Of a DNA stretch of 64,000 bases, positions 2,601 to 46,981 are shown one piece after another. This stretch comes from Nitrospira tepida (GTDB lineage Bacteria > Nitrospirota > Nitrospiria > Nitrospirales > Nitrospiraceae), in the NCBI RefSeq assembly GCF_947241125.1, contig NZ_OX365700.1:2326001-2390000 (forward strand), written 5' to 3'. Below the pieces are notes generated by a model, which was not told the origin of the DNA, ran no database searches, and was given only the letters and a program-made list of their open reading frames with translations. How positions within the stretch are numbered: position 1 is the stretch's first letter; every line of letters begins with the position of its first letter. Position numbers and translations under genes: made by a program.

Positions 2601-2810
2601 CCCACATTATTCATGACCGCTTCTACTGCAACCGCCGATACGCCGCTACGACAAGCCAGCATGCGGCTTGGTGGCATGCTGGCGGACAGGCTCGTCGCTC
2701 GCGGCCTCGACGTACTGTTTCAAGTACGCCTTGGCCGCGAGCGCCTCCGCGTGCCCGTCTCGCGTGGCGTCTTGGCGGTTTCGTCACGAACCGTCATGAA
2801 TAATGTGGGT
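2601..2810 (+). mobile_element. MITE-like element, copy A (210 bp)
   Basis: Terminal inverted repeats CCCACATTATTCATGAC (2601-2617) and its complement (2794-2810) bound a non-coding 210 bp unit. Inside are a 10 bp palindrome (2655-2664 with 2674-2683), and a long stem GCTCGCGGCC/GGCCGCGAGC (2697-2706 with 2733-2742) that encloses CGTACT-GTTTCA-AGTACG (2711-2728). Related copies lie at 11382, 20815 and 46771. No target duplication is evident and no transposase is encoded. The open frame across it is a by-product. Confidence 0.85.
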
Positions 2811-11381: not shown

Positions 11382-11620
11382 CACACATTATTCATGACCG
11401 CTTCTACTGCATCCGCCGATACGCCGCTGCGACAAGTTTGGCTGCCAGGTTCCCGCATCCAAGCGGGCAGGCTCGCCGCTCGGTCGGTCGACATACTGTT
11501 TCAAGTATGCCTTCCTCCCTCGCGGCTCCGCGTGGGGGTACCCATTGCTGTTCTCCATGCAATGGGTCCAACGCATGGCGTCTTGGCGGTTTCGTCACGA
11601 ACCGTCATGAATAATGTGGG
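11382..11620 (+). mobile_element. MITE-like element, copy B (about 239 bp)
   Basis: Same orientation as copy A. The ends are CACATTATTCATGAC (11384-11398) and GTCATGAATAATGTGGG (11604-11620). The inner hairpin is CATACT-GTTTCA-AGTATG (11492-11509), a compensated variant of that in copy A. Where copy A has the 10 bp palindrome, this copy has CCCGC-ATCCAA-GCGGG instead. A REP-like palindrome (11540-11567) is inserted in its right half. Confidence 0.8.
11540..11567. repeat. REP-like palindrome inside MITE copy B
   Basis: ACCCATTGC (11540-11548) and GCAATGGGT (11559-11567) form a 9 bp perfect stem over a 10-base loop. Related palindromes occur at 11788, 11843, 20847, 20897, 20913, 21205 and 35638, in two pairing versions (ATTGC/GCAAT and GTTGC/GCAAC). 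Confidence 0.8.
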
Positions 11621-20806: not shown

Positions 20807-20846
20807 ACCATTAGCCCGCATTATTCATGACGATTCGTGGCGTTCC

Positions 20847-20873
20847 ACCCGTTGCATGAGAGACGCAACGGGT
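20847..20873. repeat. REP-like palindrome (GTTGC version)
   Basis: ACCCGTTGC (20847-20855) pairs with GCAACGGGT (20865-20873). It is a guest in MITE copy C, close to its left end. Confidence 0.8.
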
Positions 20874-20896
20874 ACCCGGCAGTCGCCAGGCGTTGG

Positions 20897-20957
20897 ACCC
20901 ATTGCATGTTCGACCCGTTGCATGGAGCAACCCGCAACGGGTCCCCCGGCAATGGGT
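20897..20957. repeat. two nested REP-like palindromes
   Basis: Outer stem ACCCATTGC (20897-20905) with GCAATGGGT (20949-20957); inside its loop lies a complete second palindrome, ACCCGTTGC (20913-20921) with GCAACGGGT (20934-20942). The arrangement is best explained by insertion of one copy into the loop of another. Confidence 0.8.
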
Positions 20958-21204
20958 ACCCCCAAGCACAGCCGCGAAGGACCAAGGCGTACTTGAAACA
21001 GTACGTCGAGGGGCGCACGGCGCGATGAATAAAGAGCGCCATGTCTGTGCGCGCCGCCGAGTTGGTGAGGCGGCCGGACCTGAGCGGCGAGCACGCCCGC
21101 CATACCAAGCTTCGCTTGAGCCGCCGCGTTCGATCACATCGCGGCGGAGAGGTACGTTGCCTTCGACTTCTCATGTAGGCTCTGTCGCAGCGGCGAATCG
21201 GGGC

Positions 21205-21231
21205 GCCCGTTGCTCCTCGGTTGCAATGGGC
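21205..21231. repeat. REP-like palindrome, mixed version
   Basis: GCCCGTTGC (21205-21213) faces GCAATGGGC (21223-21231). One stem position is a G-T pairing between the two known versions of the family. It is a guest in MITE copy C. Confidence 0.65.
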
Positions 21232-22313
21232 CAAAGCAGCAGAAGTGCCCATGAATAATGCGGGTTAAGTGAGGGGGCATCGGCGGCTGGTTACGCGGCG
21301 CAGAGACCCTATTCTCCGGCTAAGCAGGGCTGAGCGCCAGGATTTTGCTTCGCGCCAAGGCCAAAAGGGTCTGTTGGACCGCTGCTGTGAGGCGCAAGAG
21401 CGTGCGGCGGGCATGATGGATGACTGTGCCGACCGTATTGAACACCAGAAACCGCAGCCGCTTCGGCCGGGCGTCGGAGAAATCTCCGGGTAGCGCGAGG
21501 CGCTTCAACGCGCTGAGCAGGTTATACGTGAGCACGTTGAGCCGGAACCAGGCGGCATTGGCGCCAAACTTCCCACTGGGCAGGGCCTCTGCCGCCAACT
21601 CGTTCTTGAGGACATGATGCACATGCTCCACCGTCCCGGCCTTCTCTCGGTGCCAGCGGATCAGGGAGCGACCGTCGCCCTCCCGGTTGGTCACGATCGC
21701 GAAGTGTTTCGCGGTGCTGCCATCCGCGAACAGCTCGCCTTGGCGGTGTCGCACGCGAATCGCCAAGTAGCGCCGCGCGCAAGGCCGACCCTTCCGGTAG
21801 TCCTTATCATCGGGGACAGAGGGCACCTCGGCCCACTCGCGGATCATATCCGGCTCGTCGCGGTCTGGTTGCCAGGCGGTCCCCGGCAGCCGCTCGATCT
21901 CGGCCCGCAACGGCGGGCTCATGTCCGCGCTGATTGCGTAGCCGATCCCTCGCGCCGGCTCCTCGCACCACGCCAGCACCTCCTGTTCATACAGGGCGCT
22001 GTCGCCCCGGACGAAGAGCTGCTCCACGCCGGCTGGCAACGCCGCCACGGCCCGCTCCAGGATGCGCACGTTGCCGCAGCCCGCCGGCACGTTCCCATCC
22101 CGGAATTCGTCGTGGACGACCAGGTCCTGCTCGGCCCAGACGACCACGACGGGTTGATAGCCCGACGTGTGTCAGCGGTCATCCAATAATCCCCAGGTGT
22201 GGTCATTGAATTTTCCCCACCCTCCTAACTGAAGGAGGAGGGAGATGGGACTTGACGAGACGGGAGCGTCGGCGATCATGCGTGCCCAGGGGGACCAATC
22301 TGGGGAGGCATGC

Positions 22314-23582
22314 ATGGTGGATCAGGAGCGATGGGCGGAGATTCGACGGTTGTTTCACGAGGAGCGGGTGTCCATTTCAGCGATTGGGCGGCGGTTGGAT
22401 CTGGATCGCAAGACGGTCCGGCGCAGTCTGCGGCAGACGACGTGGCACCCCTATCGCCGGGCAGCGGTGGCGGAGACGCTGCTCACCGCCCATGCCGACT
22501 TTGTGCGGACCCGCGCCCCGCAGGTGGGGTACTCGGCGCGGATTCTCTACCAGGAACTGCGGGCGAGCCGGAGCTACACCGGCAGTTATGAGACGGTGAA
22601 GCGGTGTGTGGCGCCGCTGCGCGAGGTCCAGCTGCAAGCGGAGCGGGCCCTCCTCCGCTTTGAGACCCCGCCGGGGCAGCAAAGTCAGATTGATTGGGGC
22701 CAGGCCACCGTGCCCTTCCGCACCGGTCCCGTCGTGGTGCACGTGTTCGTGCTCACCTTAGGGTTCAGTCGCCGCGGCTTCTATCACGCGTGTGCCGATG
22801 AGCGCCTGGCGCAATTTCTGGAGGCCCATGAACGGGCCTTTGCCCATTTCGGCGGGCACACCCGCGAGCATCTCTATGATCGTCCGCGCACCGTGTGCTA
22901 TGCGGATGAGACCGGCCGACGCCTCTGGAATCCCACGTTCAAAGCCTTTGCCGACTATTGGGGCTTTGAGCCCCGCGTGTGTCGGCCCTACCGGGCGCAG
23001 ACCAAAGGCAAAGTGGAATCGGGCGTGAAGTATGTGAAGCGGAACTTTCTGCCCGGGCGGACGTTTGTCGACGTGGTGGACTTCCAGGCCCAGCTCGACG
23101 AATGGAACGTGACGATCGCCGACCAGCGCCTGCACGGCACGACTCATGAGCGACCGATCGCGCGGTTTGAGCGAGAACGCGAGCACCTCGTGCCACTGGC
23201 GGGCCAGCGCGGCTTCCAGCAGGAGGCGCGGGTCTCGCGGATCGTGGCTGAAGACTATCTGGTCAGCTTCGACACGAATCGGTATTCCGTGCCCTTCCGC
23301 CTGATTGGGCAACGGGTTGAGGCGCAACGGCGGGGCGACACCATCCATATCTTCCATCGCGACCGCGAGGTGGCCACCCATCCCGTGTTACCCGGCCGCC
23401 ACCAATTCCGCATTCTGCCGGAGCACGGCCCCGGCGCCAGTGCCCGCATTGCGCGCCAGCGCCGGTCAACCCTGAGCGAACTGGCCACTCACCCCGGTGC
23501 GGTCCCGGAGGTCGAAGTGCGGGATCTGGCGTGCTACGAGGCGGTGTGCGGGAGCGCGGCGGCGCACGAGGTGCAGCCATGA
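22314..23582 (+). CDS. istA: IS21-family transposase IstA
   Basis: 422 residues from the ATG at 22314 after GGGGAGG. An N-terminal helix-turn-helix (HEERVSISAIGRRLDLDRKTVRR) is followed by the DDE integrase core (QSQIDWGQATV with the first Asp, VCYADETGR, and AQTKGKVESGVKYVKRNF with the Glu). IstA cuts and joins the element ends. Intact, within the IS21-type element, and overlapping istB by four bases (ATGA). Confidence 0.95.
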   Translation: MVDQERWAEIRRLFHEERVSISAIGRRLDLDRKTVRRSLRQTTWHPYRRAAVAETLLTAHADFVRTRAPQVGYSARILYQELRASRSYTGSYETVKRCVAPLREVQLQAERALLRFETPPGQQSQIDWGQATVPFRTGPVVVHVFVLTLGFSRRGFYHACADERLAQFLEAHERAFAHFGGHTREHLYDRPRTVCYADETGRRLWNPTFKAFADYWGFEPRVCRPYRAQTKGKVESGVKYVKRNFLPGRTFVDVVDFQAQLDEWNVTIADQRLHGTTHERPIARFEREREHLVPLAGQRGFQQEARVSRIVAEDYLVSFDTNRYSVPFRLIGQRVEAQRRGDTIHIFHRDREVATHPVLPGRHQFRILPEHGPGASARIARQRRSTLSELATHPGAVPEVEVRDLACYEAVCGSAAAHEVQP

Positions 23583-24361
23583 ACCCGGCGCAACTGGAAC
23601 GGCTCCGTGAACAGCTGACGCGGCTGCGGCTCCTGAAGAGCCGCGAGCGGCTCGACGCCCTCTTACAGGAGGCGGCGGCCAAGGACCTGTCGTATGCGGA
23701 CTTCCTCGATCAGGTCCTCAGTGAAGAAGTGACCGCCAAAGCGGAGAAGAACATTACGATGCGCACCAGTCTCGCGCGGTTTCCGTTTGTGAAGAGTCTG
23801 GAGGTCTTCGACTTCGCCTACCAGCCGTCGCTGGATAAGAAGCAGATCCAGCAAGTGGCCACCTGCCACTTCATCGAGCACGGCGAGAATCTCGTGATCT
23901 TGGGGCCGCCCGGGGTCGGCAAAAGCCACCTGGCCATCGGGCTGGGGCTCAAAGCGATCGAGCGAGGCTATCGGGTGTTGTTCACGACGGCCGCCGCCAT
24001 GATCGCCACACTGACTCGAGCCCTGACGGAGAATCGGCTGGAGGACAAGCTGAAGCTCTACACGATCCCGCGGTTACTGATCATCGATGAGATCGGCTAT
24101 CTGCCCATTGACCGCACCGGGGCCAACTTGTTTTTCCAACTCATCTCGCGTCGCTACGAGAAGGGGCCGATGATTCTCACCAGTAACCAGAGTTTCGGGG
24201 CCTGGGGGGAGGTCTTCGGGGACCGGGTGCTGGCGACCGCGATCCTGGATCGGGTCCTGCACCACGCCATCACCATCAATATCCGTGGTCATTCGTACCG
24301 GCTCAAGGAGAAACTTAAAGCCGGTTTGGTGCGCGTCGAAGAAGCCGCCACGACCACGTAA
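23579..24361 (+). CDS. istB: IS21-family helper ATPase IstB
   Basis: 260 residues. AAA+ ATPase related to DnaC, with Walker A GPPGVGKS near residue 107 and Walker B LLIIDEIGYLP. It assists IstA in target choice and transposition. The start ATG overlaps the istA stop (ATGA). An upstream in-frame start at 23531 would overlap istA and is not used. Complete and apparently functional. Confidence 0.95.
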   Translation: MNPAQLERLREQLTRLRLLKSRERLDALLQEAAAKDLSYADFLDQVLSEEVTAKAEKNITMRTSLARFPFVKSLEVFDFAYQPSLDKKQIQQVATCHFIEHGENLVILGPPGVGKSHLAIGLGLKAIERGYRVLFTTAAAMIATLTRALTENRLEDKLKLYTIPRLLIIDEIGYLPIDRTGANLFFQLISRRYEKGPMILTSNQSFGAWGEVFGDRVLATAILDRVLHHAITINIRGHSYRLKEKLKAGLVRVEEAATTT

Positions 24362-25227
24362 CCAGGGTGGGGAGTTTTCGATGACCATAACTGGGGAAAT
24401 TTGGGTGACCCTTGACACGACGTGCCCTCGTACGTCACCGTCGCCGTGCGCTTGTGGGCTTCCAGGATCGTGGCATCCACATCCAGCGTGGCGGTGCGCT
24501 GCGGCATCTGCTGCTGCACCGCGGCGAGGATGCGCCGGTTCGCGGCCCCCACGCCCGCCAAGGGCGCCGACTCCTCGGGCACGGCCGTCTGCTCGCCAGC
24601 ACGCAGCAACGGGAGATCCTCGACATGACACGCCTCCAAGAAGTCGCGCATCGTGGTGGCCGCGGGCAGCTCATAGCCCAGCAGGGCGGCCAGTGCGGCA
24701 TCGGCGCGCAGGGTCGTGAGGTCCTGGCAGCGGTCCCCGCCCGCCGCCCACAGCGCGATCAGCGTCTCCACCCACTGCGCCGACGTCACGCCGCGCTGCC
24801 GCTGTTTGATCCGGACCTGCTCATCGACGACCTGCGCCGCTCCGACGCGGCGAAACAGCTCGATCACCAAGGGCACGCCCGCATGCGCGGTGACCAGACG
24901 GGGATCAATGCGGTCGTCAATCTCGAACGGCAGCCGAGGACTCGCAAACGGCTTCTCAGGCATCAACCTCCTCCTTGGTTGGCGAATCACCCATTGGGTG
25001 AATCACCTCGCAAGGCTGATGCCATGCGGTCGCCTGCTGCTCATGCGTCCAGACCGATTCCGTGTCCATCACGGTTGGGAGCTTAGCCGGAGAATAGGGG
25101 AGAGAAGCCTTACCTAGACTCTCTTTGGGTGTTGCTGTATAAATGTCTGACGCGAGTAGGGCTGGGAGCGGAGCCTTCCCATGAAAATGGTTGCCGAGTC
25201 GGGTCATGGCACGTAGTCTGAAATCGT

Positions 25228-25304
<77 letters not shown>

Positions 25305-25620
25305 TCCCATGCTTGGCGTGTACCGCCGGCTCGTCGGGCGCAGCCCTCTTCATTGCGCCGGCGGAGAAACACCTCAAGCAATCTTGGTCTCATCTTTGAT
25401 GACTTGGCGTGTACCGCGGGCTCTTCAGGCGCAGCCCTCTTCCTTGCGCCGGCGGAGAAACACCTCAAGTGCGTGGGCTTTCTCTTGTTGTATGTGTGTA
25501 CCGCGGGCTCTTCAGGCGTAGCCTTCTTCATTGACGCCTCCGGAGAGACACCTCAAGCGGTTTTTGTTATTGCTTGCGGTGGGTTTTTGGTACCGCCGGC
25601 TCATCGGGCGCAGCCCCTCT

Positions 25621-25638
25621 ATACCAAGCTTCGCTTGA
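25621..25638. repeat. short hairpin shared with MITE copy C
   Basis: An 18-base sequence with the core CAAGC-TTC-GCTTG is identical to 21102-21119 in MITE copy C and is followed in both places by a base and CCGCC. It interrupts the fourth unit of the tandem array, so it looks like an inserted guest. Confidence 0.7.
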
Positions 25639-25788
25639 CCCGCCGGCTATTCATCGTCGTATTGTAACTAGGCCGGCGGAGAAGCACCCTATGTGGTTCC
25701 GTTCTTTTTTTCAGATGTCGCCGGAGAAACACCTCAAGTGCTTTCTCTCTACTCAGCACTCAGAACTTAGCACTCAGCACTTCCGGTT

Positions 25789-25865
25789 GCGCCCGTAGCT
25801 CAGTTGGATAGAGCAACAGCCTTCTAAGCTGTGGGTCGCTGGTTCGATTCCAGCCGGGCGCACCA
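25789..25865 (+). tRNA. tRNA-Arg (anticodon TCT)
   Basis: 77 bases with encoded CCA. Acceptor GCGCCCG pairs with CGGGCGC, D arm GCTC-AGTTGGATA-GAGC, anticodon stem ACAGC/GCTGT with loop CTTCTAA giving TCT, T arm with GGTTCGATTCC. It reads AGA and AGG. It lies in the middle of the tandem folded-repeat array. Confidence 0.95.
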
Positions 25866-26171
25866 TCCCATGCTTGGCGTGTACCGCCGGCTCATCGGGC
25901 GAAGCCCTCTTCTTTGCGCCGGCGGATAAACACCTCAAGTGATTTTATCCTTCTTGGAAGTGTAGCGCCGGCTCTTCAGGCGAAGCCTCTCCCAATTGAC
26001 GCCACCGGAGAAACACCTCAAGTGATTTGACCCTTGCTTGGGGTGTGCGTGTACCGGCGGCTCACCGGGCGTAGCCCTCTTGATTGCGCCGGCGGAGAAA
26101 CACCGCCAGTGATTGTCAAACTGGAGACCCACTGGAAAAGGCTGGAATCAAATGGCGTCATTGCTATGGCT

Positions 26172-46770: not shown

Positions 46771-46981
46771 GCGCGCATTATTCATAACGGTTCGTTGCGA
46801 AATTGCGGAGTCGCGTTGCGAGACGGGCGCGTGGAGCCTCGAGGGGCCGAGGCATACTTGAAACAGTATGTTGAGGCCGTGAGAGGCGAGCCCGCCCGCT
46901 GGCATGCCAGTAAGTCGCATGCCAGCTTGTCGCAGCAGCGAGGCCGCAATTGCAGTAGAAGCGTTCATGAATAATGCGCGC
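46771..46981 (-). mobile_element. MITE-like element, copy D (about 211 bp)
   Basis: Inverse orientation to copy A and closest to it in sequence. The ends are GCGCGCATTATTCAT and its complement (46967-46981), a compensated variant of the A and C ends. The inner hairpin CATACT-TGAAAC-AGTATG is at 46853-46870 and the 10 bp palindrome GCTGGCATGC/GCATGCCAGC at 46898-46907 with 46917-46926. It lies upstream of the DUF900 hydrolase gene. Confidence 0.82.

What the first reader, a model, noticed from the sequence alone, without database searches (positions are those of the whole stretch)
2601..2810. A 210-450 bp repeat family with compensatory changes in several hairpins
Copies at 2601, 11382, 20815 and 46771 keep base pairing while sequence changes. 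The inner hairpin is CGTACT/AGTACG in two copies and CATACT/AGTATG in the other two, with the loop fixed. The 10 bp palindrome is GCCAGCATGC/GCATGCTGGC in copy A and GCTGGCATGC/GCATGCCAGC in copy D, two compensated pairs. The outer ends also co-vary (CCCACATT, CCCGCATT, GCGCGCATT with their complements). This is selection on structure, as RNA or as single-stranded DNA, rather than on protein. No transposase of matching ends is in the window.
Basis: partly seen in the sequence, partly recalled or inferred. Interest (0 to 1): 0.8.

Follow-up and report, generated by a model that had tools for sequence, protein, structure and literature searches.

The report
Hairpin-forming IS1380-type MITE family in Nitrospira
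The four repeats are copies of a small non-coding jumping element (a MITE) of Nitrospira bacteria that shares its ends with IS1380-family transposons, and its folded hairpin shape really has been preserved by matched mutations; it is a new family of a known kind of element.

Summary
The four window copies belong to a family of about 60 end-to-end copies in this 4.73-Mb Nitrospira-type genome, present in 36 of 61 genomes searched. It is a transposable element: inverted ends CCCRCATTATTCATGA, many perfect 4-bp target duplications (CTAG, TTAG, TTAA, CTAA), no gene. I found it elsewhere: complete 1.65-1.7 kb IS1380-family elements in other Nitrospirota have the same kind of ends and the same CTAG duplication. 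So this is an IS1380-type MITE.

The compensatory changes are real. In 84 distinct ~209-bp copies, an all-against-all covariation test with a tree-based null gives 9 significant column pairs; 8 are pairs of the predicted hairpin and the ninth is next to it. Relatives alone repeat this (7 of 8). Pairing is 96.7% in register and 30-44% when slid. Compensated changes are enriched on inner branches and uncompensated ones on tips, which suggests the fold matters for spreading lineages and decays after insertion. Whether it acts as RNA or DNA is not settled.

Side finding: seven of ten near-identical IS110 copies sit at one point beside the inner hairpin, and the IS110's putative bridge RNA has matching guides.

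The parts
2601..2809 (-). MITE copy A, 209 bp; left flank TTAA holds the stop codon of the upstream ORF (2052-2600), right flank TCAG
2601..2616 (+). terminal inverted repeat CCCACATTATTCATGA of copy A
2794..2809 (-). terminal inverted repeat of copy A, other end
2655..2683 (-). side hairpin GCCAGCATGC (2655-2664) / GCATGCTGGC (2674-2683); alignment columns 128-136 / 146-154, the strongest covariation
2711..2728 (-). inner hairpin CGTACT (2711-2716) GTTTCA AGTACG (2723-2728)
2725..2738 (-). position at which the IS110-type element is inserted in other copies of the MITE (TACGCCTTG|CTYGG); empty in this copy
11382..11620 (-). MITE copy B, 239 bp, with an extra hairpin ACCCATTGC..GCAATGGGT
20815..21264 (+). 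MITE copy C, 450 bp, flanks TTAG/TTAA, with extra nested hairpin blocks
46772..46980 (+). MITE copy D, 209 bp, ends CGCGCATT, left flank CTAG

Best explanation
The repeat is a non-autonomous transposon (MITE) of about 209 bp, with variants from about 190 to 480 bp, moved by transposases of the IS1380 family (distant bacterial relatives of piggyBac). Shown: multi-copy family, inverted ends, 4-bp YTAR target duplications, no coding capacity, complete IS1380 elements with the same kind of ends and duplications in relatives, and structure-specific covariation along the foldback. Inferred: transposition in trans by such a transposase; constraint on the foldback acting mainly on copies that keep spreading, since compensated changes are enriched on inner branches and broken pairs on tips. 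The likeliest reason for the constraint is that the folded single strand (read-through transcript, or ssDNA at replication) favours spread or lowers harm to the host; this last step is a guess. Because YTAR is rare in this GC-rich genome and often is a TAG/TAA stop codon, about half of the copies sit directly behind a stop codon, where they can be transcribed without breaking a gene.
For:: 115 TIR ends against 0 for the reversed control; 53 of 129 elements have perfect 4-bp duplications, all YTAR (about 0.5 expected at random); complete IS1380 elements in Nitrospirota with matching TIRs (L401 16/16 at one end: ctag|CCCGCATTATTCATGA; L403 ctaa|CCCACATTATTCATGACGG) and CTAG/CTAG duplications in five of six; an IS1380 of Skermanella duplicates CTAG and CTAA; seven of eight genomes with IS1380 of this group also match the MITE; covariation, replicated in subsets, slide control; tips against inner branches; folding z about -10 against shuffles; 30 of 63 copies abut a stop codon.
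Against: No IS1380 of the matching group was found in this genome, so present-day mobility is not shown. The covariation test is a home-made R-scape-like null, not R-scape itself, and uses a tree from the same short alignment. Copies show no orientation preference towards the gene whose stop codon they abut (14 against 19), which weakens a cis-acting RNA role.
Confidence: 0.9

Rival explanations
1. The structure is kept because the element is transcribed and works as a structured RNA (in cis on neighbouring mRNAs, or in trans), and the transposon ends are only its means of spread.
For: Significant covariation in inner hairpins away from the TIRs. One strand folds better in 82 of 84 copies (mean -117.1 against -104.8 kcal/mol; shuffles differ by only 4.3). 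G.T exceeds A.C at stems on that strand (124 against 79 events). Many copies lie in 3' UTR positions.
Against: After normalising for base composition the C>T:G>A ratio in stems (1.67) is near that of unpaired sites (1.46); only A>G:T>C differs. No orientation bias relative to abutting genes. No Rfam family matches. Uncompensated changes dominate the tips, so most single copies do not seem to be maintained.
Confidence: 0.3
2. The paired changes come from arm-to-arm correction (template switching or intra-element gene conversion within a quasi-palindrome), without selection on structure.
For: 141 of 150 same-branch double changes go from one Watson-Crick pair to another; both TIRs of a copy usually carry the same variant.
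Against: Correction is expected to be strand-symmetric and would not by itself make one strand fold better in 82 of 84 copies (copies are related, so this is not 84 independent cases). Tips keep many uncorrected mismatches. Not excluded for part of the changes.
Confidence: 0.2
3. The element is a REP/RAYT or IS200/IS605-type ssDNA element whose hairpins are recognised by a Y1 transposase.
For: Foldback hairpins, 3' positions, and being a target of an IS110 recall REPs (PMC3733652).
Against: Perfect 4-bp duplications and long inverted ends matching a DDE transposon; REP and IS200/IS605 elements have no such duplications (established knowledge).
Confidence: 0.02

Closest known systems
IS1380 family insertion sequences (DDE_Tnp_1_4)
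   Same: Same kind of terminal inverted repeats and 4-bp YTAR duplication as complete copies in Nitrospirota and Skermanella
   Different: No transposase gene; 0.2-0.48 kb in place of about 1.7 kb; interior not shared as far as seen
Bacterial MITEs such as Correia/NEMIS, ERIC, RUP, YPAL, Nezha (reviewed in PMC2229807, PMC3733652)
   Same: Short, non-coding, TIR, target duplication, transcripts fold into long stem-loops, found next to genes
   Different: Those are described as mostly TA-flanked and A+T-rich (PMC2229807); this one is G+C-rich, YTAR-flanked, and tied to IS1380
REP palindromes (GTAG/CGTC classes)
   Same: Extragenic hairpins, often supplying a stop codon to the flanking ORF, known as landing sites of insertion sequences (PMC3733652 and its citation of Tobes and Pareja 2006)
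   Different: No YTAR duplication, no long TIR, mobilised by Y1 (RAYT) enzymes
IS110 elements with bridge RNA (PMC11208160)
   Same: The 1,141-bp element inside seven copies has both IS110 domains and putative guide stretches matching the MITE site
   Different: It is a passenger of the MITE, not its source

Membership tests
MITE (non-autonomous DNA transposon) | many dispersed short copies | tested here: met
   63 TIR-to-TIR copies of up to 480 bp in this genome
MITE (non-autonomous DNA transposon) | terminal inverted repeats | tested here: met
MITE (non-autonomous DNA transposon) | target site duplication of fixed length | tested here: met
   YTAR, 53 of 129 perfect
MITE (non-autonomous DNA transposon) | no transposase gene of its own | tested here: met
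   lengths leave no room for one; the ~1.35-kb copies carry an IS110 inserted inside
MITE (non-autonomous DNA transposon) | ends shared with an autonomous transposon | tested here: met
   (in relatives, not in this genome)
MITE (non-autonomous DNA transposon) | shown to move by that transposase | not testable with these tools
   needs a transposition assay
IS1380 family (autonomous) | DDE_Tnp_1_4 transposase inside the element | tested here: not met
   PF13701 search of the whole genome hits no place inside a MITE copy; so the repeat is IS1380-like in its ends only
REP/RAYT or IS200/IS605 | no target duplication | tested here: not met
   searches show 4-bp duplications
known structured RNA family | match to an Rfam model at its gathering score | tested here: not met
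   only two tRNAs in the window
structure under selection | covariation above phylogenetic noise in structure pairs | tested here: met
   (own implementation of the test)

The most novel reading that the evidence does not exclude
The MITE's foldback is a functional single-stranded structure under selection in spreading lineages, and at the same time the RNA-guided landing pad of a bridge-RNA IS110. That would be a two-tier system in which compensated hairpin changes also shift the IS110 target.
Probability: 0.3. Interest if true: 0.6.

Novelty: new member of a known kind. Interest (0 to 1): 0.42.

Why it matters
It ties a widespread, apparently undescribed repeat of Nitrospira to its transposon family. 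With dozens of copies per genome, it allows a direct test of whether bacterial MITEs are kept for their RNA or DNA fold. The hairpin also gives a natural, multi-copy target series for a putative bridge-RNA IS110 element.

Tried and rejected
IS1380 copies of the own genome and window: ends CCCTATTCTCCGGCTAAGC, flanks suggest 5-bp duplications. IS701 family (YTAR duplication recalled from memory; no paper found): rare in relatives and no matching ends. IS5-type transposases (PF05598): no matching ends. IS1380 elements found in the near relatives by Pfam: no matching ends; only the search with a Skermanella IS1380 protein found the right group. Viral contigs: one element of about 240 bp with the same ends and CTAG flanks (L261, about 804-1041). 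Plasmids: no copy of the MITE, but a related IS1380 end in Acidiphilium.

Full report
Organism and copies. The closest relatives of a window protein are from Nitrospira and Nitrospiraceae; the genome is one contig of 4,731,961 bases and the window is 2,326,001-2,390,000 of it. A BLAST search with copy A gives 57 matches in the genome. The terminal 12-mer CATTATTCATGA occurs 59 times forward and 56 times reverse, against 0 for the control. Among 61 genomes (own and relatives), 36 have the repeat, nearly all in the same family.

It is a transposable element. Reading both ends of every copy that I fetched shows inverted ends CCCRCATTATTCATGA (variants CGCG.., CCTG..) and a 4-bp direct duplication of the form YTAR: of 129 elements, 53 have a perfect duplication, 33 CTAG, 11 TTAG, 5 TTAA, 4 CTAA. 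Many others differ by one base. About 0.5 perfect duplications would be expected at random (inference). Recurring lengths are 191, 209, 239, 263, 292, 320 and 450 bp.

The transposon behind it. A short-end match in an Acidiphilium plasmid lay upstream of an IS1380-type start (read by eye). Complete relatives in Skermanella, annotated as IS1380 family, duplicate CTAG and CTAA and end in CCGCAATTATGCAC / CCGCATTAATGCAC. That transposase, searched against 296 Nitrospirota genomes, matched in 16. Six complete elements, 1,650-1,705 bp, have both ends and YTAR flanks, five with CTAG on both sides. L401 matches the MITE end in 16 of 16 bases, and L403 shares CCCACATTATTCATGACGG with one end of the MITE. 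Seven of eight such genomes also match the MITE, some with more than 20 matches. The own genome has no match of this group at the threshold; its IS1380 copies have other ends. That IS1380 and piggyBac are related and share a TTAA-like preference is knowledge from memory, touched on in papers listed but not read.

Are the compensatory changes real? 84 distinct copies of 200-215 bp were aligned (24 own, 60 from relatives). RNAalifold gives one foldback with an inner and a side hairpin, 64 pairs. I then scored all column pairs (G statistic with average product correction) against 60 null alignments in which each column's parsimony changes were thrown anew on the FastTree tree. Nine pairs reach E<0.05; eight are structure pairs and the ninth is a neighbour: columns 130-152 (TA 48, AT 14, GC 12), 133-149, 76-105, 77-104, 40-170, 4-206, 85-96, 17-192. 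Relatives alone give 7 of 8 in structure, own copies alone 3 of 3. In-register pairing is 96.7%; sliding by 1 to 4 gives 30-44%. Column pair 4-206 lies in the TIRs, where a transposase would demand matching ends, so it is not evidence for RNA; the others lie inside.

What keeps the fold? On inner branches 68 compensated double changes face 45 single changes that break a pair or make a wobble; on tips 72 face 258. This is what is expected if spreading lineages keep the fold and inserted copies decay (inference). One strand folds better than the other in 82 of 84 copies, and stems carry more G.T than A.C on it (124 against 79 events in a structure defined by Watson-Crick pairs only). That hints at a single strand of fixed polarity, but the copies are related, and normalising by base composition removes the C>T part of it. 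About half of the copies (30 of 63) abut a stop codon formed by the duplicated YTAR, against 22 of 71 YTAR sites in the window (p=0.053), so most of this follows from the target itself. There is no orientation bias (14 against 19).

The IS110 passenger. Ten copies of a 1,141-bp element with DEDD_Tnp_IS110 and Transposase_20 domains, 100% identical over the protein searched, lie in the genome. Seven are inside the MITE at one point beside the inner hairpin, GTACGCCTTG|CTYGG. The region before its gene folds into a stem-loop that holds TACGCCT (same strand as the left half of the target) and CCGAGC (reverse complement of the right half), as expected of the target loop of a bridge RNA (PMC11208160 found; the layout of guides is recalled, not tested). 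The matches are short (6-7 bases) and no chance level was computed. Its expression and function were not tested.

Verdict. Observation confirmed; interpretation partly right. It is a new family of a known kind of element, with unusually clear covariation. Bacterial MITEs with strong RNA folds, REPs that supply stop codons, and REPs as landing sites of insertion sequences are all known (PMC2229807; PMC3733652). I found no paper on an IS1380-type MITE in Nitrospira, within an open-licence library only.

Noticed in passing
G000:C1 near 294469-295823, 1088298-1089550, 2469297-2470557, 2769062-2770415, 2798832-2799878, 3809320-3810674, 4054451-4055785 (loci L470, L472-L477): Seven MITE copies are split at the same point by an IS110-type element with a putative matching bridge-RNA guide; three further copies (L468, L469, L471) lie elsewhere at a shared GCCTTG|CTCG.
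   Followed up: partly
window 11531-11575 and 20850-20965: A ~30-bp hairpin unit (ACCCATTGC..GCAATGGGT and CCCGTTGC variants) sits inside longer MITE copies and may explain the ~30-bp steps in element length.
   Followed up: no
window 25228-26115: tRNA-Pro(tgg) and tRNA-Arg(tct), each followed by a repeated 67-153 nt block; eight copies of a CGCCGGCGGAGAAACACCTCAAG-like unit.
   Followed up: no
window 21307-25099: An IS1380 copy with ends CCCTATTCTCCGGCTAAGC is interrupted by an IS21 (istA 22245-23582, istB 23531-24361).
   Followed up: partly
L261 about 804-1041 (IMG/VR contig 3300015264_000082): A different element of about 240 bp with the same TIRs and CTAG on both sides, not one of the Nitrospira copies studied.
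   Followed up: no
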